Origin: Prevotella sp.
GTDB taxonomy: Bacteria; Bacteroidota; Bacteroidia; Bacteroidales; Bacteroidaceae
NCBI GenBank assembly: GCA_016286995.1
Contig: JAEEVA010000016.1
Coordinates: 1-61,805 of the forward strand
Direction: 5' to 3'
DNA length: 61,805 bases
This document shows positions 7,026-60,683 of this stretch, piece after piece; within the stretch, counting starts at the first letter, position 1; every line of letters starts with the position of its first letter. The position numbers and the translations under genes were made by a program. Under the pieces are notes generated by a model that made no database searches, was not told the origin of the DNA, and was given only the letters and a program-made list of their open reading frames with translations.

Positions 7026-8336
7026 ATGGAAGAATTTCTAAGCTTATGTAATGAGGTGACGCTGTTGTCGCCATCAGTAGGAGCTATTGTGGCAGGTGTT
7101 GCTGCCTGTCTGCTGCTATTGGTGTCGGGCTTCGCCTCAGGTTCCGAGATAGCCATCTTTTCTCTGTCGCCTGCCGACCTGAGTGAGTTGGACGAGGAGA
7201 AGACACAGATTGATATCGACATCAAGCGCCTGCACGAGGAATCGGAGCGTACGCTGGCCACCATCCTGATTACCAACAACTTGGTGAACGTCACCATCAT
7301 CATGCTTTTCGGCTATTTCTTTGCCCATACCGTCGACTTCGGTGGTGCGTGGTGGCTGGAATTCCTGTGCATCACGGTACTGCTGACATTCCTGCTGTTG
7401 CTGTTTGGCGAAATCATGCCGAAGATGTACTGCGGACAGCATGCTTTGAGTTTCTGTCGTAAGGCCGTAGGCGGTCTGCTTTTTTTCCGAAAGCTGTTCT
7501 ATTCCTTTGCCAGCATCGTCATGAGTTCCGGTAAGCTGACGGAGCGCGTGGTGCAGAAGGAGAGTCACACGCTGAGTGTCGATGACCTGGAGCAGGCGCT
7601 GGAGCTGACCGACAAGGAGGATATCAAGGAAGAGCAGCGCATGCTGGAAGGCATCGTGCGCTTTGGTGACGAGACGGCGAAGGAGATTATGACGTCGCGT
7701 CAGGATGTCGTTGACCTCGACTTCAAGTCGACATTCCAAGAGGTGATGCAGTGTGTGGTGGAGAACAACTATTCGCGCATTCCCGTATACCAGGACAATA
7801 GCGACAACATCCGCGGCATCCTGTATATCAAGGATTTGCTGCCACATCTGTCGAAGGGCAGCAACTTCCGCTGGCAGTCGCTCATCCGTCCGCCGTATTT
7901 CGTGCCGGAAACGAAGAAGATTGACGACCTGCTGCGTGAGTTCCAGGAGAACAAGGTACACATCGCCATTGTTGTCGACGAGTTTGGCGGCACCAGCGGC
8001 ATCGTGACCTTAGAGGACATCCTTGAGGAAATCGTGGGTGAGATCAACGACGAGTACGACGAGGACGAGAAGTCGTACCAGCGTATCAATAACAACACCT
8101 TTGTCTTTGAGGGCAAGACCATGCTCAGCGACTTCTACAAAATACTGAAGCTCGACGACGACATCTTCGAGGATGTGGAGGGTGATGCCGATACGATTGC
8201 CGGCCTGCTGCTCGAAATCAAGGGTGACTTCCCGAAGCTTCGCGAGAAGATAGACTATAAGAACTTTACCTTCGAGATACTCGATATGGAGGAACGACGC
8301 ATCTCAAAGGTAAAGGTTGTATTGCATGATGTATGA
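7026..8336 (+). CDS. gldE: GldE-like CNNM/CBS membrane protein
   Basis: The layout is that of the hemolysin-C/CorC class. An N-terminal CNNM (DUF21) membrane domain with about three or four helices (20-180) is followed by a pair of CBS domains (about 215-335, with VVDEFGGTSGIVT) and a C-terminal CorC/HlyC domain. In Bacteroidota this subfamily, next to ssb, is called GldE. It is essential for gliding in Flavobacterium, but it is also kept in non-gliding Prevotella-like species, where ion transport or another envelope role is more likely. The usual partner gldD is not adjacent. The last codons, HDV and the stop, lie in the first unit of a heptamer array. Confidence 0.88.
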   Translation: MEEFLSLCNEVTLLSPSVGAIVAGVAACLLLLVSGFASGSEIAIFSLSPADLSELDEEKTQIDIDIKRLHEESERTLATILITNNLVNVTIIMLFGYFFAHTVDFGGAWWLEFLCITVLLTFLLLLFGEIMPKMYCGQHALSFCRKAVGGLLFFRKLFYSFASIVMSSGKLTERVVQKESHTLSVDDLEQALELTDKEDIKEEQRMLEGIVRFGDETAKEIMTSRQDVVDLDFKSTFQEVMQCVVENNYSRIPVYQDNSDNIRGILYIKDLLPHLSKGSNFRWQSLIRPPYFVPETKKIDDLLREFQENKVHIAIVVDEFGGTSGIVTLEDILEEIVGEINDEYDEDEKSYQRINNNTFVFEGKTMLSDFYKILKLDDDIFEDVEGDADTIAGLLLEIKGDFPKLREKIDYKNFTFEILDMEERRISKVKVVLHDV

Positions 8337-8404
8337 TGTCAGATGGCTGAGGGCTGAAGTCAGATGGCTGAGGGCTGATGGCTGAGGGCTGATGGCTGAG
8401 GGCT
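8328..8404. repeat. eleven heptamer units between gldE and the C11 peptidase gene
   Basis: Eleven contiguous 7-bp units run from GATGTAT (8328) through GATGTCA, GATGGCT, GAGGGCT, GAAGTCA, then alternating GATGGCT/GAGGGCT to 8404. The first unit includes most of the gldE stop codon, and the array ends two bases before the stop codon of the convergent gene. The whole gap is therefore repeat. Confidence 0.85.
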
Positions 8405-8406
8405 GA

Positions 8407-9660
8407 TTACCAGCCGTAGCGGCTCCAGTTCATAACGTTGTTCCATTCGAAGTTGTTGGCGTACTTGTTGTACTGGAAATCACCGTAGGTATAGCCTTTG
8501 CCTTCTTTGGGTAAATACATGCTGACACAGCCATAGGGCAGTTTGTCATCGAACGTGTCGAAGGCTGCGACGAGATTGTAGCTGCCGCTGGAACCGTCGT
8601 AGATGGTCATCCATTTCATGGACATGCGATAGTAGGGCACGGCCTGCTGGAACGAACTTTCCCACTGTTTGAAGACGTCGGCAGGAGCCAGGCGGTTGAT
8701 GACGGCACGCATGTCGTACATCAGCGGTGCGTCGTAGCCCCAATAGAAGGCTATGCCCGAGAAGTCGGGTGAGTCAGGACACTGCGGATAGCCGCCGGTA
8801 GTCTGGTCGATGGCATCCCGCGTTTTGGCGCACAGATCTATGATATAGCGCGTGTCAACGACCGACAGCGGCACGCTGTAGCCATTGAGATACGACGACT
8901 TGAAGGCCTGCAGGTAGTAGTCGAAGTAGGCGTCGATGATACCCTTGTACATATTGGCATCGCTCTTGAACAGGTGCGGCATCACCTTGTCGTACGGCGC
9001 ACCGTTGCCAGGAATCTCGGCAGGCGAGCCTATCAGGTATTCCGTAGCGTCGCGCAGTTCGTAGGCCACCTCGGCACACATCATGTTACAACAGTCGGCA
9101 AAGATGTACTTCATCTTCGGCAGACTCTTCAGCGCCTTGGCCATCTGTGTGATGTTCATCCACTTGTAGTCATCCAGACCGTAGGCACGTCGAGGTACTC
9201 GGCTGGCACTGCGTGTCTGAGCTATCGTGTCAGTAGATACCGCCCAGCCACAGGCATGTCCCCACAGCACCAGGGCGTATTCGTGAGCCGGAGCGAGTGA
9301 TGTCATGCGCTGCAGGACAGCCGTAAACTGCTCAGGGTCAGAGGCGTAGAAGTCGCTGGTGAACTTATAGAGCGTGTCGACGGGCTGATTCTGGTTGTTG
9401 GTGATTTTGGCGATGAAGGGCTTCTCCTTGCCCGACTTGCGGTCGACGAAGACGAGCAGGTTGTTGCGATTGGGAATCTGGTTGGCAGCGGCCTTCATCT
9501 CGTTAATGTCGTCCTGGGCATACGCCGACAGGTCGTTGTCACCGGACATATAAACCATCACGGTACGCTGGGCCATGGGGTCGAGCGGTTCGTCATTCTC
9601 GCTCTTGCTACAGGCTGCGAACAGCAGCACCGTGCTAATCAAAGGCAATAAATATTTCAT
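8407..9660 (-). CDS. clostripain-like (C11) cysteine peptidase, lipoprotein
   Basis: The 417-residue product begins with a lipoprotein signal (lipobox LFAAC, Cys17), so it is probably anchored in the outer or inner membrane facing outward. The C11 fold is recognised by VMVYMSGDNDL, the catalytic His135 in LWGHACGW, and the catalytic Cys in FADCCNMM. Cys191 matches the family position DxC, and Cys190 beside it is unusual. These peptidases are abundant in gut Bacteroidales and cleave after basic residues in characterised members. The gene is monocistronic and divergent from the GH25 gene, with a TACCTTTG box (9681-9688, minus strand) 21 bases upstream of its start. Confidence 0.93.
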   Translation of the reverse strand: MKYLLPLISTVLLFAACSKSENDEPLDPMAQRTVMVYMSGDNDLSAYAQDDINEMKAAANQIPNRNNLLVFVDRKSGKEKPFIAKITNNQNQPVDTLYKFTSDFYASDPEQFTAVLQRMTSLAPAHEYALVLWGHACGWAVSTDTIAQTRSASRVPRRAYGLDDYKWMNITQMAKALKSLPKMKYIFADCCNMMCAEVAYELRDATEYLIGSPAEIPGNGAPYDKVMPHLFKSDANMYKGIIDAYFDYYLQAFKSSYLNGYSVPLSVVDTRYIIDLCAKTRDAIDQTTGGYPQCPDSPDFSGIAFYWGYDAPLMYDMRAVINRLAPADVFKQWESSFQQAVPYYRMSMKWMTIYDGSSGSYNLVAAFDTFDDKLPYGCVSMYLPKEGKGYTYGDFQYNKYANNFEWNNVMNWSRYGW

Positions 9661-9680
9661 TCTTCTTATTATTTTTCGTG

Positions 9681-9717: not shown

Positions 9718-9738
9718 CAGGCAAAATATTTGATAACG

Positions 9739-10810: not shown

Positions 10811-10981
10811 ATCACGAATTAGAGAATTAGAGAATTTTTATTTAGAGAGTGCATCTAAAGATGCTTTGAATTTAGAGAATTGGTGACGCACAGCCTCATC
10901 TCTACATTCCAGATCGCTTGCGACCTCATTCTGACAAGCAGCACCCAATAAAAATTCTCTAATTCTCTAATTCTTGATAAA
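10808..10981. mobile_element. MITE-like element with 32-35 bp terminal inverted repeats
   Basis: The left end (10811-10842) and the right end (10947-10978) are inverted copies matching at 31 of 32 positions; a further three bases on each side also match. Each arm holds AATTAGAG words in tandem. The interior of about 100 bp has no ORF. Size and ends fit a miniature inverted-repeat element. No clear target duplication was seen. The left end begins exactly at the preceding U-tract. Confidence 0.65.
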
Positions 10982-11356: not shown

Positions 11357-11418
11357 AAGCGTCAAATTAAAATGAAGGAAATGTGATAAAAGACATCAGA
11401 AAACCGACAATGCACAAT

Positions 11419-13823: not shown

Positions 13824-14915
13824 ATGTGGATGTTGATTTTCACGCTGTTGCCTTTGTCTGCACTCGCCTATATCGGCTGGCACGTATGGTGCCTGCTGCC
13901 TCTCAGTTGGGTGTGGAAGGTGCTGATAGTGGCGCTGATGACGGGAGCGTTTCTGCTGTTGTTCGCAGGCTTCATGCGTGTGACAGACAGGATGCCGATG
14001 CCATTGGCGATAGCTACCTACGAGATTGGCACGTCGAGCATCATCATACTGCTTTATCTCTTTATGCTTTTCCTGCTACTCGACCTGGGAAGACTGCTGC
14101 ACCTGTTGCCACGTACCTTATTATATAATAATTGGTGGACTGCAGGAGGTATCACCGTTGGCATGTTCGCCCTCTTTTTATATGGCTATCTGCACTATCA
14201 GCACAAGCACCGTGAGGAGATACAGCTTTCCACAGAGAAACGGCTGACCAAACCCCTGAAGATTGTGGCGATGAGTGACCTGCACATCGGCTATCACAAC
14301 CGTCGCAGCGAACTGCACCGTTGGGTGGAGATGATCAACGCCGAGCAACCAGACCTGATTCTCATTGCCGGTGACATCATCGACGGTAGCATGCGCCCTG
14401 TGATAGAACAGCAGATGCACGAGGAGTTCAAACTGCTGAAAGCGCCTGTCTATGCCTGCATCGGTAACCATGAATACTATAGCGGAGAGCCCAGGGCCAG
14501 ACAGTTTTATCAGGAGGCCAACATCCATCTGTTGCAGGATTCCTGTGTCACCGTTGGCGATGTCTGCATCATCGGACGTGATGACCGCACCAACTTCCGT
14601 CGTGATTCGTTAGGCGTGCTGATGCAGAAGGCAGACCGTTCGAAATACTGCATTCTGCTCGACCACCAACCCTATCATCTGGATCAGGCTGAGCGTCAGC
14701 AGATTGACTTCCAGTTCAGTGGTCACACGCATCACGGACAGGTGTGGCCCATCTCGTGGATTACGGAACATGTCTACGAATGTGCTTTCGGCCCTTACCA
14801 GCGAGGCAATACACACTATTATGTTAGCAGCGGACTGGGCATCTGGGGCGGCAAGTTCCGTATCGGCACCCGCTCAGAATATGTCGTCATAACGCTGACA
14901 GCTGTTAGCCGTTAG
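13824..14915 (+). CDS. membrane-bound calcineurin-like metallophosphoesterase
   Basis: The first 125 residues form about four membrane helices. The rest is a metallophosphoesterase domain with all metal-binding motifs: SDLH (151-154), GDIID (183-187), GNHE (214-217) and GHTHHGQ (about 297). It resembles YkuE/YaeI-type enzymes, which act on phosphodiester lipids or other envelope substrates; the true substrate cannot be read from sequence. The final codons (AVSR and TAG) fall in the start of a heptamer array, so the original C-terminus may have been replaced. Confidence 0.9.
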   Translation: MWMLIFTLLPLSALAYIGWHVWCLLPLSWVWKVLIVALMTGAFLLLFAGFMRVTDRMPMPLAIATYEIGTSSIIILLYLFMLFLLLDLGRLLHLLPRTLLYNNWWTAGGITVGMFALFLYGYLHYQHKHREEIQLSTEKRLTKPLKIVAMSDLHIGYHNRRSELHRWVEMINAEQPDLILIAGDIIDGSMRPVIEQQMHEEFKLLKAPVYACIGNHEYYSGEPRARQFYQEANIHLLQDSCVTVGDVCIIGRDDRTNFRRDSLGVLMQKADRSKYCILLDHQPYHLDQAERQQIDFQFSGHTHHGQVWPISWITEHVYECAFGPYQRGNTHYYVSSGLGIWGGKFRIGTRSEYVVITLTAVSR

Positions 14916-14994
14916 CAGTTAGCTGTTAGCAGTTAGCTGTTAGCAGTTAGCTGTTAGCAGTTGGCAGTTAGCCAAAAGCCAAAAGCTAAAAGCC
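14904..14994. repeat. thirteen heptamer units after the phosphoesterase gene
   Basis: Ten GTTAGCN-type units (GTTAGCC, then GTTAGCA and GTTAGCT in alternation, with one GTTGGCA and a final GTTAGCC; 14904-14973) are followed by AAAAGCC, AAAAGCT and AAAAGCC (14974-14994). The stop codon of the upstream gene is in the second unit. The array abuts the truncated reading frame that follows. Confidence 0.9.
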
Positions 14995-16268
14995 ACTCAG
15001 CTAACGAGGGTGTATGGTCTGGCACAGGAAACACTGCTACATGGGTAGTGGAAGACGGTGGTACTGCCGATGCATACCTCGACCGTTTAGGCTATAAGCC
15101 TATGGGCGGCAAGAAGGCTAACGTGGCTATCAAGGGCGTATGGAGCAATACTTATAACGATGCTACGGTGGATTATGCCAATGGCGGATTCTCGGTGATG
15201 GTGATGAACCACCTGAAGGGGGCGGCAAACGACGAAAGCAATGACATCTCCATCATCCGTCTGCCCAAGGAGGATACGATGTATGACTACTATGAATTCT
15301 CGCAGACCGGTGCCAATGATGGTGGAACGGATACAAACCTGAGCGATGTGTACAGTAAGGACCGTGCCAAGAACCGCGGTCGTCTGAAGACCGACCTGCT
15401 ACTACCGACATCTGCCCAGAAGACGGAGACACCTGCCAACGTATATTACGGCCAGCGAACGTACACTCGCATACCAATTAAGGAGAGTGAGTTGAACACG
15501 ATGTTGTCTGGCATCAGGGACCATACAGAAACGGTGTCTGCCGGTGCCTCTAACTTAGGCTATTATTTGGTGGAAAACCCGTTCACCTGTGGACTGGATA
15601 TGGATGCGTTCTTTGCAGCGAACACCGGACTGCAACCGAGATACTGGCTGCTTACCGCCACAGGACAGCACTTGGTACAGCGGGCTGCAACTGGCGACTG
15701 GATTAATCTTAGTGGCACATCCTTTGCAGCTAATAATGCCGTGGTGGCTTCCGGACAGGGATTCTTCGTACAGGCAAAAACGGCAGGTCAGGCTACCGAC
15801 ATTACCTTTAATAAGGATATGCAGGTACAGTCGCGCTTTGGCAAGAAGGATAACGGCACCCCCTATACTGTTGTCATTGGAACTCAATATAACGAGAGTA
15901 CCGGCGAGATTGAAGATATTACAGATGTTGTTACTATCTACAACTATGTGCAGGATACTGGTGATGGCAAGGTGTTCCCGCTGAGAGCTCCTACTCGTGG
16001 CGTCCAGACCGTGAGCACTCTGATTCAGGAACAAGCAGCCACAGAAACCCATCTGCAGATCTTCGCAATGGACAGGACTGTTACAGTGTTAGCTTCTACT
16101 GACGAGCCGCTGACGAGTGTGCGCTGCTACGATACCGGTGGTCGTCTGGTACATAGCGCCAGTCCACAGACTGCAACGTACAGCTTTGGCGTGCCGAGTG
16201 CCGGCATCTATGTCATCGATGCACAGACTGGAAACGACCGCAAGACCCTGAAGGTGACAATCAGATAA
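14995..16268 (+). pseudogene. 5'-truncated surface protein with type IX-like C-terminal domain
   Basis: The open frame can be traced back to a TTG at 14961, but its first codons are heptamer repeat. Recognisable protein begins only near NEGVWSGTGNTATW, with no start codon, promoter or signal peptide. The middle (NPFTCGLDMDAFFAAN, YWLLTATGQHLVQ) resembles the C-terminal regions of very large Prevotella-type surface proteins. The last about 75 residues (SVRCYDTGGRLV, AGIYVIDAQ, KTLKVTIR) look like a type A sorting domain for the type IX secretion system. I infer that a rearrangement, with the repeat array at the junction, removed the 5' end. Confidence 0.72.
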
Positions 16269-16754: not shown

Positions 16755-18128
16755 ATGAAGCAAAATGATTTCAATCAGGGAGTCAGGTGGGTCAAGACGA
16801 GCATTGTGCTTGGTCTGCTGACCCTTTTGCCTTTGTCGGCTAATGCTCAGAAACAGTGGACACTGGCCGACTGCATCAATTATGCCATTGAGAACAACAT
16901 CACGCTACGCCAGGCAAGGCTGAAGCAGTATGGAGCAACGGAAACCCGCAAACAGTCGGCGGCTGCTTTGTTCCCTACACTCTCGGCCTCGACCAACCAG
17001 AGTGTGGGCTACCGTCCTTGGCAGAATGCTGGTACGGCGACTGTGTCCAATGGCACGGTGAGCACATCGGCGAACAAGAGCTATTATAATGGCAGCTATA
17101 GCGTGAGTGCCCAGTGGACGGTTTGGAACGGCTGGCAGAATGTTAACCAGTTAAAAAAGAACCGGTTGTCGGAGGAACAAGCTGGTCTGACAGCAGACGA
17201 GACGGCCAACTCCATCCAGGAGAAGATAGCCCAGCTGTACGTCAAAATATTATATATGACGGAGGCTATCGAGGTGCATCGCCAGAGTTTGGAGACCAGC
17301 AAGAAGAATGAAGAGCGTGGCCGGCAGATGGTGGACGTGGGTAAAATGTCGAAGGCCGACCTGGCTCAGTTGACTGCCCAGCGTTCCACTGACGAATATA
17401 ATATTGTGGAGGCCGAGTCGAATCTGGCCGACTCAAAGTTGCAGTTGAAGCAGTTGCTGGAGATTACGAGCACGGATGCTTTCGAGATAGCTGTTCCCAA
17501 TGCTACTGATGAACAGGCACTGGCTCCGATTCCATCGCTGGCTGAAGTCTATGAGACTGCCTTGGAGTTGCGTCCTGAGATTCGTAACTCAAAGCTGGGT
17601 ATTGAGTCGAGCGAGCTGCAGCTGAAGATAGCCCGTGCAGGTTGGCTGCCCACTGTCAGCATGACGGGTGGATTGGGAACCTCTACCAATTCGATGTCGC
17701 AGAATGGCTGGGGCTCGCAGGTGAAGACCAACTTCGATGCTTCGGCAGGTGTCAGCGTCAGTATTCCCATCGTCGACGGACGTAAGGCCAGAACAGCTGT
17801 CAACAGTGCCCGTATTGCTATGGAGGAGGCACAGCTTGAATTGCAGGACAGGGAGAAACAGCTGTATTCTACCCTTGAGGGCTTCTGGCTTGACGCCCAG
17901 AACAACCAACAGAAGTTCCGCACGTCACTGACTACGGTGGAGAGTGAGCAAGCTTCGTATAACCTGCTGTCAGAGCAGTTCCAGCTGGGACTGAAGAACA
18001 TTGTGGAGCTGATGACGGGTAAGGACAAACTGTTGCAGGCCCAGCAGAATAAGCTGCAGTCAAAGTATATAACGATTCTGGCGATGCAGCTGCTGAAGTT
18101 CTATCAGGGATATGAGATGAGTCTCTGA
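16755..18128 (+). CDS. tolC: TolC-family outer membrane efflux protein
   Basis: From the ATG at 16755 the protein has 457 residues with a signal peptide ending SANAQ. The mature start, QWTLADCINYAIENN, is the typical opening of OEP/TolC proteins, and two long alpha-helical coiled repeats rich in Gln, Glu and Ala follow (about 60-240 and 265-450). It should form the outer membrane channel of a tripartite exporter with the MacA-like adaptor and MacB-like ABC transporter encoded next. The longer TTG-started frame at 16713 runs through the promoter and is rejected. Confidence 0.92.
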   Translation: MKQNDFNQGVRWVKTSIVLGLLTLLPLSANAQKQWTLADCINYAIENNITLRQARLKQYGATETRKQSAAALFPTLSASTNQSVGYRPWQNAGTATVSNGTVSTSANKSYYNGSYSVSAQWTVWNGWQNVNQLKKNRLSEEQAGLTADETANSIQEKIAQLYVKILYMTEAIEVHRQSLETSKKNEERGRQMVDVGKMSKADLAQLTAQRSTDEYNIVEAESNLADSKLQLKQLLEITSTDAFEIAVPNATDEQALAPIPSLAEVYETALELRPEIRNSKLGIESSELQLKIARAGWLPTVSMTGGLGTSTNSMSQNGWGSQVKTNFDASAGVSVSIPIVDGRKARTAVNSARIAMEEAQLELQDREKQLYSTLEGFWLDAQNNQQKFRTSLTTVESEQASYNLLSEQFQLGLKNIVELMTGKDKLLQAQQNKLQSKYITILAMQLLKFYQGYEMSL

Positions 18129-18130
18129 GA

Positions 18131-18241
18131 ATTAAGAGTTAAGAAGTAAGAATTAAGAGGTGTCGGCTTCGCCGAGTAAGAGTTAAGAAGTAAGAATTAA
18201 GAGTTATTGCCCTTGGGCAATTTAAGAATTGAGGATTTAAG
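18131..18241. repeat. heptamer array with two small hairpins, tolC-macA gap
   Basis: ATTAAGA, GTTAAGA, AGTAAGA, ATTAAGA (18131-18158) are followed by the hairpin TCGGC-TTC-GCCGA (18163-18175). Then come AGTAAGA, GTTAAGA, AGTAAGA, ATTAAGA (18175-18202), the hairpin TTGCCC-TT-GGGCAA (18207-18220), and three looser units. The array fills the whole gap. The hairpins lack U-tracts, so they are not obvious terminators. Confidence 0.85.
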
Positions 18242-20284: not shown

Positions 20285-20293
20285 AAGGTAAAA

Positions 20294-20326
20294 GTGAAAA
20301 GTGAATAGTGAATAATTTGCTACCGC
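20294..20326 (+). repeat. GTGAATA heptamers plus ATTTGCTACCGC before the permease gene
   Basis: GTGAAAA, GTGAATA, GTGAATA (20294-20314) are followed by ATTTGCTACCGC (20315-20326), which touches the ATG at 20327. This is one of four copies of the composite element. Confidence 0.85.
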
Positions 20327-21544: not shown

Positions 21545-21548
21545 AATT

Positions 21549-21576
21549 GAGAAGTGTTAAGTGAGAAGTGTTAAGT
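21549..21576. repeat. four heptamer units before the histidine kinase gene
   Basis: GAGAAGT, GTTAAGT, GAGAAGT, GTTAAGT (21549-21576) fill the gap between the permease stop and the kinase ATG at 21578. Confidence 0.85.
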
Positions 21577-21577: not shown

Positions 21578-22648
21578 ATGAATAAACGACTGAAGGTTTT
21601 CCTGCATATCGTCTTCTGGGCATATATGTTCCTGTCGCCCATGCAATACATGCGTGGTACGGGTATGTCTATGTTGCAGTACGCCATGAACTGCATGTCG
21701 CCGTTGCTGCTTATGGTAGTATTCTATGCCAACTACAAATGGTTGACACCCCAGTATTTCGTGGCTGGCAAGCATCGCTACTTCCTGCTCATCAATGCTT
21801 TTATGATATTGGCGTTCAGCATCGTGCTGTACTACTGGGGGGACTTTACTCGTGAGATGTTCCAACCTGGCTCCAGTCAGCGCAAGCCTGACGCCTTGGA
21901 TTCCTTCTTCTTCTTTGTCCGCGACGGCATCAACTTCGCCATCTTTGCTACGGTGGCCACCTGCCTCAAACTGGCACAGCAGTGGATGTGGGCCGACGAT
22001 GCACGTCGTGCGGCAGAGACGGCGCGAGCCGATGCTGAGTTGAGTAATCTGCGCAACCAAATCAATCCGCACTTCCTGCTCAACACGCTGAATAACATCT
22101 ATGCGCTGACGGCCTTCGATACCCCCAAAGCTCAGGAATCCATTCAGGAACTCTCCAAGATGTTGCGTCACATTCTCTATGACTACCAGCAGCCCACGGT
22201 ATCGTTCAAGGACGAGGTGGAATTCCTCGAGAACTATGTCAAGCTGATGCGTATCCGTTTGCCGCAGTCTGTCGACGTCACCTTCAAGTCGCGCTGTTCG
22301 ACGTTCAATGTTGAGGTGGCTCCCATGATCTTCATCTCGCTTGTGGAGAACGCCTTTAAGCATGGTGTTAGCCCAACGGAACCCTCGTTTATCCATATTA
22401 GCTTGGAAGCCGACGAGCATCAGATCGTCTGTGACATCCAGAACTCGAACTTCCCCAAGGCCATTGGTGACCATAGTGGTCATGGCATCGGTTTGCAACA
22501 GGTGCAGCGTCGTCTGGAACTGGCCTACTACGAGAACCACACTTGGACGAAAGGTGTCTCTGACGACGGCAAAACCTATCATTCTCGCATCCAGATTACT
22601 GACTGGATGGAGGCGAATAGTAAGTTAAGAGTGAAGAGTGAAGAATAA
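21578..22648 (+). CDS. LytS-type sensor histidine kinase
   Basis: The protein has 356 residues. Four N-terminal membrane helices (to about 135) have little extracytoplasmic sequence, which suggests sensing at the membrane. The His_kinase domain follows, with phospho-acceptor His165 in NQINPHFLLNTLNNIY, an N-box in SLVENAFKHGV and a G-box in HGIGLQQVQRRL. It pairs with the LytTR regulator encoded 31 bp downstream. Being cotranscribed with a MacAB-TolC set, the pair may sense envelope stress or the exported compound; that is inference. Its last residues, NSKLRVKSEE, are encoded by the heptamer array at 22621. Confidence 0.92.
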   Translation: MNKRLKVFLHIVFWAYMFLSPMQYMRGTGMSMLQYAMNCMSPLLLMVVFYANYKWLTPQYFVAGKHRYFLLINAFMILAFSIVLYYWGDFTREMFQPGSSQRKPDALDSFFFFVRDGINFAIFATVATCLKLAQQWMWADDARRAAETARADAELSNLRNQINPHFLLNTLNNIYALTAFDTPKAQESIQELSKMLRHILYDYQQPTVSFKDEVEFLENYVKLMRIRLPQSVDVTFKSRCSTFNVEVAPMIFISLVENAFKHGVSPTEPSFIHISLEADEHQIVCDIQNSNFPKAIGDHSGHGIGLQQVQRRLELAYYENHTWTKGVSDDGKTYHSRIQITDWMEANSKLRVKSEE

Positions 22649-22679: not shown

Positions 22680-23390
22680 ATGACCATCAATTGCGCCATT
22701 ATCGACGATGAGCCATTGGCAGCAGGCCTGCTGAAGAGCTACACAGAGAAAACCCCGTTTCTCAACCTGATAGGAACCTATGGCTCCGCACTGGAAGCCA
22801 TGAAGGAACTGCGCGACCGTCCTGCACAGCTACTGTTCCTCGACATCCAGATGCCGGAACTGTCAGGCATCGAGTTTGCCAAGATACTGCCTGCCGACAC
22901 GAAGATTATCTTTACTACGGCCTTCCAGCAGTATGCCATCGAAGGCTATAAAGTCAATGCCATCGACTACCTCATGAAGCCCATCTCCTACGACGACTTC
23001 CTGAAGGCAGCCAACAAGGCCCTCGACTGGTTCTCTGTGTCACAGCGTCAACAGGCTACCGCTCTGGATCGTTTTATGTTTGTCAAGAGTGATTATAAGC
23101 TTATCCGCGTGTCCCTCGACAACATCCTGTATATCGAGGGACTGAAGGACTACGTGCGCATCTACCTCGAGGACGGTACCAAGATTATGTCGCTCATGAA
23201 TATGAAGAAACTCGAAGACTACATGCCCCGTCCCGAGTTCCTGCGTACCCATCGTTCCTACATTGTCCACATGACCAAAGTGCAACAGGTAGACCGCTTT
23301 CGTATTGTCTTCGGCACCGAGTATATACCTATTTCCGATAGCTACAAGGACGACGTGCAACAGTATTTCGAGCAGCACACACTGTCATAG
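22680..23390 (+). CDS. LytTR-family response regulator
   Basis: The receiver domain (1-120) has the acidic pair in IIDDEPLAAG, phospho-acceptor Asp55 in LFLDIQMPELSG, and the conserved Lys in YLMKPISYDDF. A LytTR DNA-binding domain fills about 140-236 (KSDYKLIRV, ILYIEGLKDYVRIY, RTHRSYIVHM). It is the cognate partner of the LytS-type kinase upstream, and LytTR regulators typically act on promoters close to their own genes, so the efflux operon or cysE is a plausible target. The stop TAG leads directly into a TTCATAG repeat array. Confidence 0.94.
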   Translation: MTINCAIIDDEPLAAGLLKSYTEKTPFLNLIGTYGSALEAMKELRDRPAQLLFLDIQMPELSGIEFAKILPADTKIIFTTAFQQYAIEGYKVNAIDYLMKPISYDDFLKAANKALDWFSVSQRQQATALDRFMFVKSDYKLIRVSLDNILYIEGLKDYVRIYLEDGTKIMSLMNMKKLEDYMPRPEFLRTHRSYIVHMTKVQQVDRFRIVFGTEYIPISDSYKDDVQQYFEQHTLS

Positions 23391-23397
23391 TTTTCAG

Positions 23398-23418
23398 TTC
23401 ATAGTTTATAGTTTATAG
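23398..23418. repeat. three heptamer units before cysE
   Basis: TTCATAG, TTTATAG, TTTATAG (23398-23418) lie between the regulator stop and the cysE ATG at 23421. The same TCATAG word contains the regulator's stop codon. Confidence 0.75.
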
Positions 23419-23420
23419 TT

Positions 23421-29353: not shown

Positions 29354-29393
29354 GCGGAAACAAATTTTTCACTTTTCACTATTCCCTTTTACC
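29354..29393 (-). repeat. GTGAAAA heptamers plus ATTTGTTTCCGC before rlmH
   Basis: Reading on the minus strand: GGTAAAA, GGGAATA, GTGAAAA, GTGAAAA (29393 down to 29366), then ATTTGTTTCCGC (29365-29354) touching the rlmH ATG. The stop codon of the DUF5687 gene lies in the first unit. This is the minus-strand copy of the composite element. Confidence 0.8.
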
Positions 29394-34681: not shown

Positions 34682-35908
34682 ATGATAGATTATAAGCAAA
34701 TAAGATTACGCAAAGGTAAGGAGGAGAGCTTACGGAGATTCCATCCGTGGGTGTTTTCTGGTGCTATCGCCAGTATTGATGAAGGCGTTACAGAGGGTGA
34801 AATAGTGCGTGTGGTGACCAATTCGGGCGATTTCATCGCTGTCGGACACTATCAACAGGGAAGCATTGCAGTCCGCGTGTTGACATTTTCTGACGTGCCT
34901 ATCGATGCAGAGTTTTGGGCTTCACGCCTGCGTTCAGCCCTCCAGATGCGACAAGCCATCGGACTGGTGACGGATGATACTACTCATTCTAATTCCTACC
35001 GCTTGGTTCATGGCGAAGGTGACCACCTGCCTGGGCTTATTATTGATGTCTATGGCGAGACGGCAGTCATGCAGGCGCATTCTATCGGTATGCATCTGTG
35101 TCGTAAGGAGATAGCTTCTCAGCTTATAGTAGTTATGGAGGGTTACATCAAGCATATCTACTATAAGAGTGAGACCACGCTACCTTTCATGACGGCTGAT
35201 GACATGAGCGGATTCCTTTATGGTGGCAGTAATGATAATATCGCGATGGAGAACGGCCTGAAGTTTCGTGTCGACTGGCTGAAAGGTCAGAAGACAGGTT
35301 TCTTCGTCGACCAGCGCGAGAACCGTTCGTTGCTGGAGCATTATGCCCGTGGTAAGCGTGTGCTGAACATGTTCTGCTATACGGGTGGCTTCTCGTTCTA
35401 TGCCATGCGGGGTGGGGCCGAACTCGTTCATAGTGTGGACTCGTCGGCTAAGGCCATCGAGTTGACCAAGCAGAACGTAGAGCTCAATTTCCCTGGCGAC
35501 CCGCGTCATGAGGCCTTCTGCGAGGATGCTTTTAAGTTCCTGGAGGGTATCGGTAATCATAATGTTCAATGGTCAATGGTCAATGTTCAATGTTCCTACG
35601 ACCTTATCATCCTCGACCCGCCAGCTTTTGCCAAGCATCGTGGAGCCCTGCACAACGCCCTGAAGGGCTATACGCGCCTGAATCAGAAGGCTTTCGAGAA
35701 AATCGAACGGGGCGGCATTCTCTTTACGTTCTCTTGTTCGCAGGTAGTCACAAAGGACCACTTCCGCAATGCCGTCTTCACAGCAGCAGCATTGGCTAAG
35801 CGTAAGGTGCGCATCCTTCATCAGCTGCATCAGCCTGCTGATCATCCCATCAACATCTATCATCCGGAGGGTGAATATCTGAAGGGTTTGGTGCTCTATG
35901 TGGAGTAA
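34682..35908 (+). CDS. rlmI: class I rRNA methyltransferase, RlmI-like
   Basis: An N-terminal PUA domain (about 1-80, RFHPWVFSGAI) precedes a central linker domain and a SAM-dependent Rossmann domain (VLNMFCYTGGFSFYA, VDSSAKAI, LIILDPPAFAKH). The family methylates C5 of cytidine 1962 in 23S rRNA in E. coli. At 408 residues it is a little long. The excess is a stretch at about 294-305 (NVQWSMVNVQCS), just before the catalytic LDPPAF strand, coded by a 7-bp tandem repeat. The end overlaps tilS by 11 bp. Confidence 0.92.
   Translation: MIDYKQIRLRKGKEESLRRFHPWVFSGAIASIDEGVTEGEIVRVVTNSGDFIAVGHYQQGSIAVRVLTFSDVPIDAEFWASRLRSALQMRQAIGLVTDDTTHSNSYRLVHGEGDHLPGLIIDVYGETAVMQAHSIGMHLCRKEIASQLIVVMEGYIKHIYYKSETTLPFMTADDMSGFLYGGSNDNIAMENGLKFRVDWLKGQKTGFFVDQRENRSLLEHYARGKRVLNMFCYTGGFSFYAMRGGAELVHSVDSSAKAIELTKQNVELNFPGDPRHEAFCEDAFKFLEGIGNHNVQWSMVNVQCSYDLIILDPPAFAKHRGALHNALKGYTRLNQKAFEKIERGGILFTFSCSQVVTKDHFRNAVFTAAALAKRKVRILHQLHQPADHPINIYHPEGEYLKGLVLYVE
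35562..35595. repeat. heptamer array inside the rlmI-like coding region
   Basis: ATGTTCA, ATGGTCA, ATGGTCA, ATGTTCA and a six-base partial ATGTTC run without interruption and stay in frame. They encode an extra loop in a conserved enzyme core domain. Confidence 0.9.
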
Positions 35909-38256: not shown

Positions 38257-38409
38257 AATCTTACAATCTTACAATCTTACAATTAAAAAAAGGGGTATCG
38301 CCATCCTTATATATATTATATAACTAATTGATATATAGATATTTATATATATTATGCGAAGAATGGCACCCCTCAAAAAACAACTGTAAGACTGTAAGAC
38401 TGTAAGAAC
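38257..38409. repeat. 150-bp inverted element with 8-bp tandem arms
   Basis: The left arm is AATCTTAC three times (38257-38280). The right arm is GTAAGACT twice and GTAAGAAC (38386-38409), close to the inverse of the left. Inside, GGGGT...GCCAT (38292-38304) faces ATGGC-ACCCC (38363-38372). The centre is about 55 bp of almost pure A/T. It precedes the primase-like remnant and could be a replication-related or mobile palindrome. Confidence 0.75.
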
Positions 38410-44530: not shown

Positions 44531-45859
44531 ATGAATACGAAATTACGTTTAGCGGTTATGAACTTCTTGGAGTTCGCCGTTTGGGGTGCATACCTCACGT
44601 GTATGGGAAACTATCTGGGAATAGCCGGATTAGGTGACAAAATCTCATGGTTCTATGCCATTCAGGGCATTGTCAGCATCTTTATGCCCACTCTGATGGG
44701 TATTGTGGCCGACAAGTACATCCAGCCACAGCGCCTGCTGGGTCTTTGCCATTTGCTGGCCGGTGCCTTCATGATCAGCTGTTGGTGGATGGGCGAACAG
44801 GCTGGCTTCGGTAATGAACTGACCGACAAATCGTTATTCATCGCTCTATACACCATGAGTGTGGCATTCTATATGCCGACTATCGCGCTGACCAATACGG
44901 CAGCATTCACCATCCTGAAGAACAACGGTCTGGATACCGTCAGGGACTTCCCGCCCATCCGTGTGCTCGGAACAGTTGGTTTCATCGCTACCATGTGGTT
45001 TGTCAACTGCGCCTTCCTCGACGATACGGGCTTTGGCTTCACGCTCGGCGAGAACGCCCATAAGTTCCAGTACACCTACCTGCAGTTCCTCGTATCAGGT
45101 GTACTCAGTCTGGTACTCTTCGTCTATTGTTTCACGCTGCCCGAGTGCAAGCTGACCAAGAAGGAAGGCAAGGTGTCGCTCACAGAGAGTCTCGGACTCA
45201 ACGCCTTCAAGCTCTTCAAGCGCCGTCAGATGGCTTTGTTCTTCATCTTCTCGGCGTTGCTGGGCATGTGTCTGCAGGTCACCAACGGCTTTGCCGGTCC
45301 TTTCCTCACCAGTTTCAAGGGCGTACCGGAGTATGCCGACTCCTTCGCTGCCAACAATGCCACCATGCTGACCTCCATCTCCCAGATTAGTGAGGCCTGC
45401 TGCATTCTGATGATTCCTTTCTTCCTGAAGCGTTTTGGCATCAAGGTGGTGATGCTCATGTCGTTGTTTGCATGGGTATTCCGCTTCGGATTCTTCGGCA
45501 TCGGTAATCCTGCTATGCCTGGTGTTATCTTCTTTATCCTGTCATGCGTCGTTTATGGCGTAGCCTTCGACTTCTTCAATGTGTCTGGTGGTATCTTTGT
45601 TGACCAAGAGTGTGCCCCCGATATCAAGGCTTCTGCACAGGGACTGTTCATGATGATGACCAATGGAATCGGTGCCACCATCGGAACATTGGCTGCCGGC
45701 GAAATCGTCAACAGCTTCTGCCATTGGGAAGGCGGATACCTCGTTGGCGAGTGGCAGACGTGTTGGTTCGTCTTTGCTAGTTTTGCCTTTGTGGTAGGTG
45801 TATTGTTCGCTATCGTATTTAAGCCGGAAAAGAAACCCATTGGGGAAATAAGACATTAA
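44531..45859 (+). CDS. NupG/XapB-like nucleoside transporter (MFS)
   Basis: The 442-residue protein has about twelve helices. The opening MNFLEFAVWGAYLTCMGNYL and the PTLMGIVADKYIQPQRLL loop are typical of the nucleoside:H+ symporter family in the inner membrane. It should import purine and pyrimidine nucleosides; specificity cannot be read. It is followed by an A-rich filler (45860-45905) of TAAAAAA-like words and then rsmE. Confidence 0.9.
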   Translation: MNTKLRLAVMNFLEFAVWGAYLTCMGNYLGIAGLGDKISWFYAIQGIVSIFMPTLMGIVADKYIQPQRLLGLCHLLAGAFMISCWWMGEQAGFGNELTDKSLFIALYTMSVAFYMPTIALTNTAAFTILKNNGLDTVRDFPPIRVLGTVGFIATMWFVNCAFLDDTGFGFTLGENAHKFQYTYLQFLVSGVLSLVLFVYCFTLPECKLTKKEGKVSLTESLGLNAFKLFKRRQMALFFIFSALLGMCLQVTNGFAGPFLTSFKGVPEYADSFAANNATMLTSISQISEACCILMIPFFLKRFGIKVVMLMSLFAWVFRFGFFGIGNPAMPGVIFFILSCVVYGVAFDFFNVSGGIFVDQECAPDIKASAQGLFMMMTNGIGATIGTLAAGEIVNSFCHWEGGYLVGEWQTCWFVFASFAFVVGVLFAIVFKPEKKPIGEIRH

Positions 45860-45916
45860 AAAATAAAAAAATAAAAAATTAAAAAAATAAAAGAATAAAA
45901 AAGCTACAGTAGACTG

Positions 45917-46638: not shown

Positions 46639-46662
46639 GTTAAGAAGTTAAGACGTTAAGAA
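46639..46662. repeat. three 8-bp units after rsmE
   Basis: GTTAAGAA, GTTAAGAC and GTTAAGAA lie between the rsmE stop and the next ATG at 46667. Confidence 0.7.
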
Positions 46663-46666
46663 GATC

Positions 46667-47488: not shown

Positions 47489-48187
47489 ATGCAAGTAGTC
47501 TACGAAGATAACCATATCATTATCGTTTCGAAGCAGAGCGGCGAGATAGTGCAGGGCGACAAGACCGGCGACACGCCTCTGAGCGAAACGGTGAAGGCAT
47601 ATATCAAGGAGAAGTACCAGAAACCGGGTGCCGTGTTCCTGGGCGTCGTACACCGGCTGGACCGTCCTGTGTCCGGTTTGGTGGTGTTTGCCCGGACGTC
47701 GAAGGCATTGACCCGTCTGAACAATATGTTCCGCGACGGAGAAGTACATAAAACGTATTGGGCACTGGTAGGTAAGATGGAAGATGTCAGATGTCAGATG
47801 TCAGATGATGGTGAATGGCATACTGTGACGCATTGGCTGACGCGCAATGAGAAGCAGAACAAGAGCTACGCTTATGATCATGAGGTGCCGGGGGCGAAGA
47901 AGGCCGTGCTGCGATACAGGGTGATAGGCCATAGCGAGCGCTATACGCTGGTGGAGGTGCAGCTGCTGACGGGCCGTCACCACCAGATACGCTGTCAGCT
48001 GGCGGCAATAGGCTGTCCAATCAAGGGCGACTTGAAGTATGGCGCACGGCGCAGCAATCCCGACGGCAGCATCTCGTTGCTGGCGCGTCGCATAGAATTC
48101 GTGCATCCTGTGTCGAAGGAACCGATAGCCGTCGAGGCTCCGTTGCCAGACGATAAACTTTGGAGAGAGTTAAGAGTTAAGAATTAA
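47489..48187 (+). CDS. RluA-family pseudouridine synthase
   Basis: The 232-residue enzyme has no S4 domain. The catalytic Asp58 lies in HRLDRPVSGLV; LLTGRHHQIRCQLAAIG and LLARRIEFVHPV complete the family pattern. It should convert uridine to pseudouridine in rRNA or tRNA; the site is unknown. Residues about 99-107 (DVRCQMSDD) come from three GATGTCA repeats inside the gene. The last residues LRVKN and the stop codon come from the GTTAAGA array after it. The ATG at 47489 is preferred over a GTG at 47453 that lies in the promoter. Confidence 0.92.
   Translation: MQVVYEDNHIIIVSKQSGEIVQGDKTGDTPLSETVKAYIKEKYQKPGAVFLGVVHRLDRPVSGLVVFARTSKALTRLNNMFRDGEVHKTYWALVGKMEDVRCQMSDDGEWHTVTHWLTRNEKQNKSYAYDHEVPGAKKAVLRYRVIGHSERYTLVEVQLLTGRHHQIRCQLAAIGCPIKGDLKYGARRSNPDGSISLLARRIEFVHPVSKEPIAVEAPLPDDKLWRELRVKN
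47783..47803. repeat. three heptamers inside the rluA-like coding region
   Basis: GATGTCA repeated exactly three times (21 bp, seven codons) and followed by GATGATG. Three units keep the frame. The loop falls between KTYWALVGKM and WHTVTHWL. Confidence 0.88.
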
Positions 48188-48224
48188 GAGATAAGAGCTA
48201 AAAGCTAAGTGCTAAAAGCTAAAA
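48169..48224. repeat. eight heptamer units, rluA-like to tamB
   Basis: GTTAAGA, GTTAAGA, ATTAAGA, GATAAGA, GCTAAAA, GCTAAGT, GCTAAAA, GCTAAAA (48169-48224), followed by G and the tamB ATG at 48226. The upstream stop TAA (48185-48187) lies in the third unit. Confidence 0.9.
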
Positions 48225-48225
48225 G

Positions 48226-58138: not shown

Positions 58139-58173
58139 ATTGTTTTATTTGTTTTGATTTGTTATTTTCCCTG

Positions 58174-58307
58174 CAAAGGTACAATATTTTCAGTTCATAG
58201 TTCATAGTCCATAGTCCATAGTTGCAGTCGTTTAACATCTTTTATTACAAACAATTCAAAAAAACTATGAACTGTGAACTATGAACTATGAACTTTTTGT
58301 ACCTTTG
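58174..58307. promoter_or_regulatory. divergent promoters bracketed by inverted heptamer arrays
   Basis: The HIT promoter has TACCTTTG on the minus strand (58174-58181); the ftcD promoter has TACCTTTG on the plus strand (58300-58307). Directly behind each is an array of AACTATG-type heptamers: 58192-58223 (minus orientation) and 58263-58294 (plus orientation). The two arrays are inverted copies matching at 29 of 32 positions. Each array occupies the place of the -33 box, where no TTTG is found. Confidence 0.75.
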
Positions 58308-58330
58308 TCGCCAAATTATAGTGTTTTGAT

Positions 58331-59350: not shown

Positions 59351-59363
59351 CGGTCTTGTATTG

Positions 59364-60635
59364 TTACCCATTATTTACTCCTTGCCGGCCAAAAGGCTTG
59401 ATGGTTGCTTTTAATATTTCTATGGGGTTGTAGTCATTTAGTTGAATGCGAAGAAGTGTATCCTGGTGTAATCCAAGTTCTTCACATGCCTCGTTCCACA
59501 GTTGACGAGTAGAAGGCCGGCAGGTCATTTGTTCGACGACAGGTGATGTAACGCTATTCATGACGATGACACCATCAGGAGCGATAACATCTTTTACCTT
59601 TGACATGATTTCCTTGAGGTGACCACCGTGGCCGCCGATAAAGACGGCATCGGGGGTTGAGCTTGTGGCGATGACATCGCAACAACCAAGGAAGTCGCCC
59701 ATGTGGACGTTGATACCAGGGGCACCGAAGCGACGGACATTTTCGTGGATGATGGCCTTGCACTCTGGACGAATCTCGAAGGCTTCTATTTGAAGATGTG
59801 GAAACTGCAGACGCGCCTCAATACTGACGCTACCCGTACAGAAGCCAATGTCCCAAAGAACGTGACGCTTGTGTAAATCAAGAGCCTGAAGTGTGAGCAG
59901 GCGGATGGGCATCTTGGTAATCATCTTCTCGCGACCATCTAATAATTCAAATTGATTATCTGGAATTCCAAACCATGAATTAGGCAAATTGCACGAATCG
60001 ATTATTATGCAATTGGGCATTTCAAACTCCCGCTGAGTGGCTTCTTCAAGGGTGAGTGAACTGATTTTTTCGAGTAAGGGATTCCCGAGATGTTCGCCAA
60101 TATGAATGGTATAGTTGGTGTAGCCATAGTCGAGCATTCGTCGGGCTATGGCAGAGGGGGTGTGTTCTTTGTCGGTCAGCACACCAATCTTCTCTGCACG
60201 TTCAATGAGTGTACGGTCAAATTCATGCCAAGGGCGGCCGGTGAGTGATACGATACGCATATCGTGGTAAGGCATCACGAGACGGTGTGCCAGCATTTGC
60301 AAGGAGTTAAACGTTGGGTAGACCACGATATCGGCCTCAGGCAACTTCCGCTTGATGGTATTGGCAAATCCGAAGAAGAGAGGGTCGCCACTGGCGAAGA
60401 CAATAATTGAGTGCTCAGCGGTTTTCCCGCTGAGACTTTCGTAGCGCTCAAACACGGCATCGAGGGGAACGGTGATGTCAATCCATTGTGCGTCAGTGGG
60501 CAGTAATGGAGCCATTATCTCATGATGGCGCTTACCACCCGAGAATACCTTTCCATTTTTGATAATCTCCAGCACCTCTGGCGGAAAGAACGGCTGTGGA
60601 TTGTCCGTAATACCTATGACAATGAATCTAATCAT
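59364..60635 (-). CDS. cobL: bifunctional precorrin-7 methyltransferase/decarboxylase (CobL, CbiE-CbiT)
   Basis: The 423-residue protein fuses two corrin-ring enzymes. The N-terminal CbiE domain (about 1-210) methylates C5 (FVIGITDNPQPFF, VFASGDPLFFGF). The C-terminal CbiT domain (about 225-420) methylates C15 and decarboxylates, with its SAM site in LWDIGFCTGSVSIEA. ATG 60635 is preferred over a TTG at 60644 inside the CAATTCT array. The next corrin gene lies upstream on the same strand, so a cobalamin operon extends past the right edge. Confidence 0.93.
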   Translation of the reverse strand: MIRFIVIGITDNPQPFFPPEVLEIIKNGKVFSGGKRHHEIMAPLLPTDAQWIDITVPLDAVFERYESLSGKTAEHSIIVFASGDPLFFGFANTIKRKLPEADIVVYPTFNSLQMLAHRLVMPYHDMRIVSLTGRPWHEFDRTLIERAEKIGVLTDKEHTPSAIARRMLDYGYTNYTIHIGEHLGNPLLEKISSLTLEEATQREFEMPNCIIIDSCNLPNSWFGIPDNQFELLDGREKMITKMPIRLLTLQALDLHKRHVLWDIGFCTGSVSIEARLQFPHLQIEAFEIRPECKAIIHENVRRFGAPGINVHMGDFLGCCDVIATSSTPDAVFIGGHGGHLKEIMSKVKDVIAPDGVIVMNSVTSPVVEQMTCRPSTRQLWNEACEELGLHQDTLLRIQLNDYNPIEILKATIKPFGRQGVNNG

Positions 60636-60641
60636 AATTAT

Positions 60642-60683
60642 CAATTCTCAATTCTCAATTCTCAATTGTCAATTGTCAATTAA
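60642..60683. repeat. six heptamer units between two cobalamin genes
   Basis: CAATTCT three times, CAATTGT twice and CAATTAA (60642-60683) fill the gap exactly from the stop codon of the upstream gene to the start region of cobL on the minus strand. Confidence 0.9.

What the first reader, a model, noticed from the sequence alone, without database searches (positions are those of the whole stretch)
8328..60683. Many gene junctions are built from 7-bp tandem words, a different word at each place
Heptamer arrays lie at 4338, 6634, 8328-8404, 14904-14994, 18131-18241, 20294, 21549-21576, 22621, 23398, 29366-29393, 34640-34668, 48169-48224, 58192/58263 and 60642-60683; 8- and 9-bp arrays lie at 21, 38257, 46639 and 56423. 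Period 7 is kept while the word changes (GATGGCT, GTTAGCA, GAGAAGT, GTTAAGA, AACTATG, CAATTCT), so this is not one element copied around. The arrays fill gaps exactly from stop to start codon. They resemble the heptanucleotide STRR repeats described in cyanobacteria; I know of no account of the mechanism in Bacteroidota. A constant period with a changing word suggests a process that counts seven bases, such as a polymerase or repair slippage step.
Basis: partly seen in the sequence, partly recalled or inferred. Interest (0 to 1): 0.85.

Follow-up and report, generated by a model that had tools for sequence, protein, structure and literature searches.

The report
Six-plus-one repeat arrays litter Prevotella genome
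This rumen Prevotella genome carries hundreds of short tandem DNA repeats, most built from a six-letter word plus one variable letter, between and inside its genes; relatives carry different words at the same spots, and the repeats likely grow by a copying slip that normal DNA repair would miss and that a second repair-type protein may otherwise hold down.

Summary
The arrays are real. In 1.06 Mb of this genome (36%) a 6-mer recurs three or more times at 7-bp spacing 131 times between genes, against 36 at 8 bp, 16 at 9, 0 at 6 and none in shuffled DNA; 200 kb of E. coli gave none. (2) Words recur as partly species-specific families and are swapped at one orthologous site: RlmI proteins with 98.7% identical flanks carry unrelated repeat inserts; 14 of 97 macB gaps in relatives hold 12 words, some related. 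(3) Arrays also lie in frame inside genes. Heptamer bias and the slippage idea are in print, as are one-word arrays in Xanthomonas, Nostoc and Beggiatoaceae. I favour hexamer-primed slippage or template switching that escapes MutS1. A lead: arrays are sparser in 10 genomes with a MutS-domain paralog than in 6 without (p=0.004; 0.076 under full tree correction). New variant of a known kind.

The parts
20..45 (.). 9-bp array, core AATTCG + NNN
   Evidence: TRF
4337..4355 (+). 7-bp array CAATTGA, 2.7 copies (weak)
6625..6645 (+). 7-bp array AAGTGAA between genes ending 6624 and starting 6672
8334..8407 (.). 7/14-bp array GATGGCT/GAGGGCT between convergent genes (GldE and a clostripain-like protein); touches both gene ends
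10816..10836 (.). 8-bp array GAATTAGA, left arm of an inverted array pair
10953..10974 (.). 8-bp array AATTCTCT, right arm of the pair
14900..14995 (+). 7-bp arrays GTTAGC+N, then AAAAGC+N; begins inside the upstream gene, whose stop codon lies in the array
18128..18241 (+). 7-bp arrays, TAAGA family, on both sides of a small GC-rich inverted word (by eye), between tolC-like and macA-like genes
   Evidence: 12 of 92 orthologous gaps in relatives hold arrays
20290..20314 (+). 7-bp array NAGTGAA between ABC ATPase and macB-like permease; 14 of 97 orthologous gaps in relatives hold arrays, of 12 words
21548..21576 (+). 7/14-bp array (TGAGAAGTGTTAAG), stop to start
22623..22644 (+). 7-bp array AGTGAAG at the 3' end of a histidine-kinase gene
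23387..23420 (+). 7-bp array ATAGTTT, stop to start
29366..29393 (-). 7-bp array TTTTCAC (sense GTGAAAA)
34639..34668 (+). 7-bp array AGTGAAG with one 8-bp step, at the 3' end of a 3'-5' exonuclease gene
34682..35908 (+). RlmI-like 23S rRNA methyltransferase (PUA + Methyltrans_SAM) that hosts an in-frame array
35561..35595 (+). In-gene 7-bp array TCAATG+N encoding VQWSMVNVQC; the same site in relatives is empty or holds other words
38257..38283 (.). 8-bp array AATCTTAC, left arm of an inverted pair
38383..38407 (.). 8-bp array ACTGTAAG, right arm of the pair
45858..45902 (+). 8-bp A-rich array (TAAAAAA+N) in the gap between genes ending 45859 and starting 45917
46639..46663 (+). 8-bp array GTTAAGA+N
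47782..47807 (+). In-gene 7-bp array AGATGTC inside a pseudouridine-synthase-like gene (47489-48187)
48166..48225 (+). 7-bp array TAAGAGN and derivatives, from inside the upstream gene end to the next start codon
56420..56458 (-). 9-bp array, core ACTATA + NNN
58192..58223 (-). 7-bp array AGTTCAT (sense ATGAACT) facing the left gene of a divergent pair
58263..58294 (+). 7-bp array ATGAACT facing the right gene; inverted partner of 58192-58223
60636..60681 (-). 7-bp array AATTGA+N (N = C,C,G,G,G,T), nearly stop to start

Best explanation
The arrays are tandem runs, most often of six constant bases plus one variable base, that differ in word between relatives at the same sites, and they likely arise by slippage or template switching in which a nascent strand would re-anneal through the six-base core alone and leave a loop that MutS1 mismatch repair would miss. 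Shown: period 7 is the commonest of periods 4 to 12 between genes and periods 4 to 6 are nearly absent; six constant columns is the commonest state of four-unit 7-bp arrays; the variable base sits at the same position in unrelated loci of the same word far more often than chance; words are shared more within a genome than between species; the word at one orthologous site differs between close relatives; arrays in genes keep the frame open. Inferred: six matched bases are enough to prime a further round, so a family is defined by its priming core while the seventh base is copied without being checked; any array with the same core can serve as template, which would spread words through one genome; 7-nt loops escape MutS1, which all 15 genomes examined possess. 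Suggested, not shown: a further MutS-domain protein (about 600-650 aa, Pfam MutS domain V, with an N-terminal part that looks membrane-spanning by eye) suppresses such events, so lineages without it would accumulate arrays. Selection then only filters: between genes most is tolerated, in genes only inserts that keep the frame open survive.
For: Period spectrum and controls. With 4-base cores, 138 four-unit intergenic 7-bp arrays of G000 have 4, 5, 6, 7 constant columns in 18, 45, 67, 8 cases; with 6-base cores 27 of 151 four-unit arrays are perfect. Same variable position in 214 of 405 same-word pairs, 58 expected (pairs are not independent). Variable base nearly evenly used (G .22, T .28, C .22, A .27), core bases skewed (A 455, T 357, G 172, C 102). 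AATTGA: of 584 occurrences the next on the same strand is 7 bp away 150 times, 8 bp 13, 6 bp 1. Words shared within G000 in 4.6% of same-orientation pairs from different stretches and in other genomes 6.7%, between species 2.3%, letter-shuffled 0.33%. Word difference at RlmI and in gaps. Copy number differs by whole sets of three units (7 residues): RlmI proteins of 404, 411 and 425 aa with one word. MutS1 in 15 of 15 genomes; in S. pombe MMR handles loops up to 4 nt, and heptanucleotide repeat stability involves another MutS homologue, Msh3, outside MMR (PMC5427490, abstract seen). MutS-like paralog: arrays per 100 kb 0,3,7,0,10,0,0,0,5,0 with it and 19.2,17,27,22.8,8.5,5 without.
Against: Slippage loops of 5 and 6 nt might also escape MMR, yet such arrays are almost absent; the model does not explain that lower limit. 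Adjacent units differ at the variable base slightly more often than permuted (z=-2.9), which single-unit slippage would not give. Six constant columns is not a sharp rule: 63 of 138 have 4 or 5, and in relatives' five-unit arrays 5 is commonest (10, 14, 8, 2 for 4 to 7). With distinct variants collapsed, concentration at one position is marginal (10 arrays; 0.52 against 0.42 +- 0.05), and three or more bases at one position occur in 10 of 42 arrays, fewer than the 16.6 +- 2.9 of random substitution, which points to copied variants rather than random ones. Some words, such as AACTATG and AGTTCAT, showed no fixed variable position. No seed hexamer was shown at empty orthologous sites. Sharing of words could partly reflect base composition or recombination between species. 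The paralog link was noticed after the fact, is clustered on the tree (3 changes) and gives p=0.076 under full Brownian correction; G117 lacks the paralog and has few arrays, G027 has it and 45 AATTGAN matches. G000 is 84% complete.
Confidence: 0.45

Rival explanations
1. Plain replication slippage of whatever 7-bp word happens to lie at each place, period 7 set by the stretch of DNA held in the polymerase (the printed hypothesis), with neutral decay afterwards.
For: Heptamers are reported as the most abundant or favoured longer repeats in many bacteria (PMC4679880, PMC4692102 and PMC4060949, passages seen); copy number differs in whole units; variants within an array are mostly two-state, as copying gives.
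Against: Decay should hit all seven positions, but same-word arrays vary at the same position; the same words recur across a genome far beyond composition; close orthologues differ by unrelated words.
Confidence: 0.25
2. The arrays are functional: stop-codon ladders or binding sites that insulate or regulate translation of the next gene, kept by selection.
For: In codirectional gaps of G000 72 of 96 period-7 arrays carry a stop in sense against 45 in antisense; divergent gaps can hold inverted pairs, each facing its own gene; purine-rich, C-poor sense strand in codirectional gaps.
Against: Stop content is close to that of letter-shuffled units (29 of 36 against a mean of 25.5 and maximum of 30 in 200 shuffles); the same gap in relatives has other words or only a few nt; 63 arrays lie inside called genes.
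Confidence: 0.12
3. A templated enzyme (telomerase-like or defence reverse transcriptase) writes six templated bases plus one untemplated base per cycle.
For: Six constant plus one nearly evenly used base is the shape such a cycle would leave.
Against: No RVT_1 match in G000, G143 or G141, which are array- or word-rich, while G016, without arrays in 100 kb, has one; dozens of words would need dozens of templates; the three genomes are 81-89% complete, so absence is weak.
Confidence: 0.05
4. Dispersed mobile elements (small MITE- or palindrome-like units) that happen to be tandem.
For: Gaps and a gene loop act as repeated insertion spots, and at the same RlmI site one relative carries a GC-rich hairpin insert instead (L196).
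Against: No shared flanks or ends seen by eye beyond the array; unit number and word vary freely.
Confidence: 0.08

Closest known systems
GGGAATC / GGGANTN heptamer arrays of Xanthomonas and GGGGA(C/T)T of Nostoc (PMC4692102; passages and section 10 read)
   Same: Period 7; partly variable positions in the unit; mostly intergenic, nearer the upstream gene end; inverted pairs; some inside genes; same gene pairs differ between close species; function unknown.
   Different: One G-rich word type per genus; here dozens of mostly AT-rich words, partly species-specific, swapped at one site, and 63 in-gene arrays in 1.06 Mb.
TAACTGA direct repeats of Beggiatoaceae, Cyanobacteria and five Bacteroidetes (PMC4679880; abstract and passages read)
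   Same: Heptamer, between genes, stop codons in all frames in the forward orientation, tolerated in genes mainly in reverse.
   Different: One word; the author suggests horizontal transfer and a binding protein. Three TAACTGA in a row occur in none of the 311 loci held.
Long simple sequence repeats, heptanucleotide class (Mrazek 2007; not held, known through the two papers above; PMC4060949 passages read)
   Same: Heptamers over-represented; polymerase slippage proposed.
   Different: Most arrays here are imperfect, so counts of perfect repeats (as in PMC4060949, pattern 7n3) would undercount them (inference).
Cyanobacterial STRR heptamers (recalled; Calothrix heptanucleotides are mentioned in PMC4692102)
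   Same: Several heptamer words in one genome.
   Different: Not compared by sequence here.
Rickettsia palindromic elements (recalled)
   Same: In-frame inserts in conserved genes.
   Different: Those are palindromes with conserved ends (recalled); none was seen here.

Membership tests
Heptanucleotide long simple sequence repeats | Tandem units of 7 bp beyond chance | tested here: met
Heptanucleotide long simple sequence repeats | Perfect copies of one word per array | tested here: not met
   8 of 138 four-unit intergenic arrays perfect with 4-base cores; 27 of 151 with 6-base cores
TAACTGA direct-repeat family | The word TAACTGA in tandem | tested here: not met
   three in a row in 0 of 311 loci held; two in a row 0 times in the window
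TAACTGA direct-repeat family | Forward (stop-bearing) orientation between genes, reverse in genes | tested here: met
   AATTGA: G000 gaps 23 forward, 7 reverse; in genes 0 forward, 14 reverse; a bias, not a rule
Xanthomonas/Nostoc G-rich heptamers | G-tract able to form quadruplexes | tested here: not met
   the common words have no G-tract; a few rarer ones hold GGG
Xanthomonas/Nostoc G-rich heptamers | Partly variable unit positions, stop-proximal placement, inverted pairs | tested here: met
Cyanobacterial STRR | Resemblance to cyanobacterial arrays | not tested
   no cyanobacterial genome was examined
Mobile palindromic or MITE-like elements | Common ends or target-site duplication | tested here: inconclusive
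   none seen by eye in the RlmI and gap listings; no systematic search

The most novel reading that the evidence does not exclude
A membrane-linked MutS-domain protein, distinct from MutS1 and MutS2, guards Prevotella genomes against repeat growth that is primed by exactly six matched bases; lineages that lose it fill with six-plus-one arrays whose words spread through the genome, replace one another at permissive sites and rewrite loops of conserved proteins.
Probability: 0.2. Interest if true: 0.85.

Novelty: new variant of a known kind. Interest (0 to 1): 0.6.

Why it matters
Why bacterial repeats favour seven bases was raised in 2007 (as reported in PMC4692102) and I found no worked-out mechanism in the searches named. 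Here the pattern looks like six checked bases plus a free one, in a genus with cultured members, with dense and nearly empty species side by side and a candidate gene whose absence goes with denser arrays. That turns the question into a knock-out and reporter experiment. It also shows a conserved enzyme whose loop is rewritten by repeat DNA, a source of protein variation that reads as ordinary sequence.

Tried and rejected
Stop-codon ladder as the reason for the words: stop content was hardly above letter-shuffled units, so dropped as main explanation. Reverse transcriptase: no RVT_1 match in G000. Loss of MutS1: present in 15 of 15. Loss of MutS2: the MutS2 query matches in 149 of 150 genomes, though some of those matches are only to other MutS proteins; in G000 it is a fragment at a contig edge, so it does not separate the genomes. 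Local spreading of words along the chromosome: sharing did not fall steadily with distance (raised at 1-3 kb in the same orientation and at 60-1000 bp inverted). Literature on these arrays: SILNSQF and heptamer or repeat terms with Prevotella gave nothing on them in the listings; the claim of novelty rests on those searches. Mrazek 2007 is not held. No strain-level DNA comparison was possible: one genome per species is held. A guess that the 11383-12654 ORF is a REP-type transposase found no Pfam match.
Full report
What is there. The window is a contig of a 2.96 Mb, 73-contig, 84% complete genome. By its MacA-like protein the closest of 79 named loci are uncultured Prevotellaceae MAGs (up to 88% identity), with isolates such as Prevotella sp. 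tc2-28 (82%) and Xylanibacter ruminicola D31d (80%) further off.

More than chance. I called genes with a simple dicodon caller of my own (47 genes in the window, a few real ones missed) and measured matches at each lag. Between genes lag 7 has z=6.5 in the window and z=14.4 in 19 other stretches, the highest of lags 2-30 in both. In 78 relative loci it has z=17.9, below lags 3 (22.7) and 21 (20.7), but exact runs of 10 or more still peak at lag 7 (65; lag 21 has 55). Coding sequence of the 19 stretches also has 22 exact lag-7 runs, against 0-3 at the other lags from 2 to 10. Counting 6-mers that recur three or more times at constant spacing in 1.06 Mb of this genome, intergenic/coding: 131/73 at 7 bp, 36/3 at 8, 16/12 at 9, 4/0 at 10, 2/0 at 11, 0/1 at 6, none in shuffled intergenic DNA; 14 bp (41/26) reflects doubled units and 22 bp (30/1) another kind of repeat. 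The relatives' loci give 68/6 at 7 bp, 27/1 at 8 and 24/1 at 9, so the lead of 7 is smaller there. Four 50-kb stretches of E. coli K-12 give none at any period from 6 to 22.

Anatomy of a unit. Arrays are seldom perfect. With a 4-base core as the only requirement, 138 intergenic four-unit arrays in this genome have 4, 5, 6 or 7 constant columns in 18, 45, 67 and 8 cases. At 8 bp the numbers for 4 to 8 constant columns are 5, 7, 8, 5, 2; at 9 bp for 4, 5, 6 they are 1, 4, 3. So six constant bases is the commonest state at 7 and 8 bp, in a spread that includes 5; in relatives' five-unit 7-bp arrays 5 is commonest. The variable base sits at the same place in unrelated arrays of the same word: 214 of 405 pairs against 58 expected; AATTGAG varied at its last base in 7 of 7 arrays, AATTGAC in 6 of 6, AAAAGTG at one position in 9 of 10, whereas AACTATG and AGTTCAT showed no fixed place. 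Base use at the variable position is nearly even, at the core strongly skewed. Within an array the variable base mostly has two states, and neighbours differ slightly more than permuted. Some 9-bp arrays have palindromic cores (CTATAG+NNN, TCTAGA+NNN).

Where arrays lie. In gaps up to 600 nt, 72 of 482 codirectional, 17 of 69 divergent and 5 of 70 convergent gaps hold a period-7 array. They start near the upstream stop codon (median 5 nt) and end a median of 39 nt before the next start codon, so the 'stop to start' picture fits only part of them. Divergent gaps can carry inverted pairs, each array facing its own gene (58192/58263). Orientation is biased: for AATTGA 23 forward and 7 reverse in gaps of this genome, 0 forward and 14 reverse in genes.

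Inside genes. Sixty-three period-7 arrays lie more than 45 nt inside called genes of this genome; for 56 of them the coding score is at least 0.05 per codon on both sides (my count). The commonest unit, repeated, has a stop in sense in 7 of 63 and in antisense in 46. They read as SILNSQF, SMVNGQW, HSSLFTL, TIDHSPL and the like. In the 78 relative loci 3 such arrays were seen. The RlmI-like methyltransferase at 34682-35908 is the clearest case. Among the 120 homologues listed (of 7997 scored) one site holds inserts of several word families or none. By my sorting, 47 AGCCAA-type, 32 TCAATT-type, 11 TCAATG/TTCAAT-type, 11 CTCACC-type and 19 other, of which 14 have only 9-10 residues there. Different-word pairs (the 19 left out) with flanks at least 95% identical number 220; the closest has 98.7% (P0003 and P0104). 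The DNA of the site was found in 24 of the 30 loci searched, by anchors required to lie in one frame: 12 are 75 nt long without an array, the window has 111, and L196 carries a GC-rich hairpin instead.

Orthologous gaps. Between the ABC ATPase and macB genes 97 distinct gaps were compared; 14 hold arrays of 7 or 8 bp with 12 words, some related (TTAAGAN, GTAAGAN, AATTGAN, AGTGAAN, ATAACGNN and others). Before duplicates were removed 24 of 104 gaps were at most 8 nt, stop codon included. Five further gaps: 12 of 92, 4 of 99, 4 of 33, 3 of 26 and 1 of 24 hold arrays. L007 carries GAAGTTANN in two gaps, and L009 AATACCGN in two.

Distribution. AATTGAN four times in a row occurs in 71 of 150 species of the genus, this one included with 162 (overlapping) matches, and in 5 of 197 other Bacteroidota. 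Samples of 78-100 kb of eight other species show 7 as the commonest of periods 6-12 in seven, with partly their own words (CTCACC+N and AGTTAA+N in G143, CTAAGA+N in G098), and no 7-bp array in G016; in G010 and G117 22-bp arrays between genes equal or outnumber them. Word sharing: 4.6% within this genome across stretches, 6.7% within others, 2.3% between species, 0.33% after shuffling letters.

The MutS lead. MutS1 is present in 15 of 15 genomes. A further MutS-domain protein (query: a 481-aa part; Pfam MutS_V only; an N-terminal part with hydrophobic stretches, by eye) matches at E<1e-50 in 50 of 150 genomes, one of them a fragment (G081), and not in G000. In 16 sampled genomes arrays per 100 kb are 0,3,7,0,10,0,0,0,5,0 with it and 19.2,17,27,22.8,8.5,5 without (Mann-Whitney p=0.004). 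The idea came from the first nine genomes; the seven sampled afterwards all carry it and were low (0,10,0,0,0,5,0), but further genomes without it could not be fetched. In the 70 genomes at least 90% complete (two of them over 5% contaminated) AATTGAN occurs in 7 of 37 with and 18 of 33 without it, G081 counted as without (my tally; test); among less complete genomes G027 has both the protein and 45 matches. The label is clustered on a tree of part of IleS (3 changes); with a phylogenetic regression p is 0.0006 at lambda 0, the best fitting of five values tried, and 0.076 at lambda 1. I treat it as a lead.

How it likely works. See Best explanation. The pattern is shown; priming by six bases is inferred. 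From memory, structural work on DNA polymerases reports that mismatches are felt up to about six base pairs behind the primer end; I did not look this up. The near absence of 5- and 6-bp arrays is not explained by any model here.

What is known. Heptamer excess and the slippage idea are in print, and Xanthomonas arrays share variable positions, stop-proximal placement, inverted pairs and differences between close species (PMC4692102, section 10 read). New here, within the searches named, are the many partly species-specific words with one architecture, the word swap at one site, the number of in-frame inserts and the MutS-domain lead.

Noticed in passing
window 10638-10782: 22-bp period arrays; 22-bp spacing stands out in this genome (30 intergenic in 1.06 Mb) and occurs in 13 of 16 sampled species, including ones without heptamer arrays in the sample (G084: 13 in 60 kb).
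   Followed up: no
window 47312-47384: Rfam match to BTncRNA_FopS, a family of paralogous Bacteroidetes sRNAs.
   Followed up: no
L001, L014, L015, L018, L021 in the gap before macB; L196 in RlmI: GC-rich hairpin inserts (CCCCTCCC...GGGAGGGG) at the same sites where others carry heptamer arrays.
   Followed up: partly
L148 near 18622, L097 near 12591, L155 near 19609: 9-bp arrays of the palindrome TCTAGA plus three variable bases inside called ORFs.
   Followed up: no
window 38257/38383 and 10816/10953: Inverted pairs of 8-bp arrays about 100-120 bp apart in long gaps.
   Followed up: no
window 11836-12052: 15-, 18- and 54-bp coding repeats in an ORF (11383-12654) without Pfam match.
   Followed up: partly
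G074 (C11 and C68): Two RlmI copies of different length in one genome bin; may be contamination (7%).
   Followed up: no
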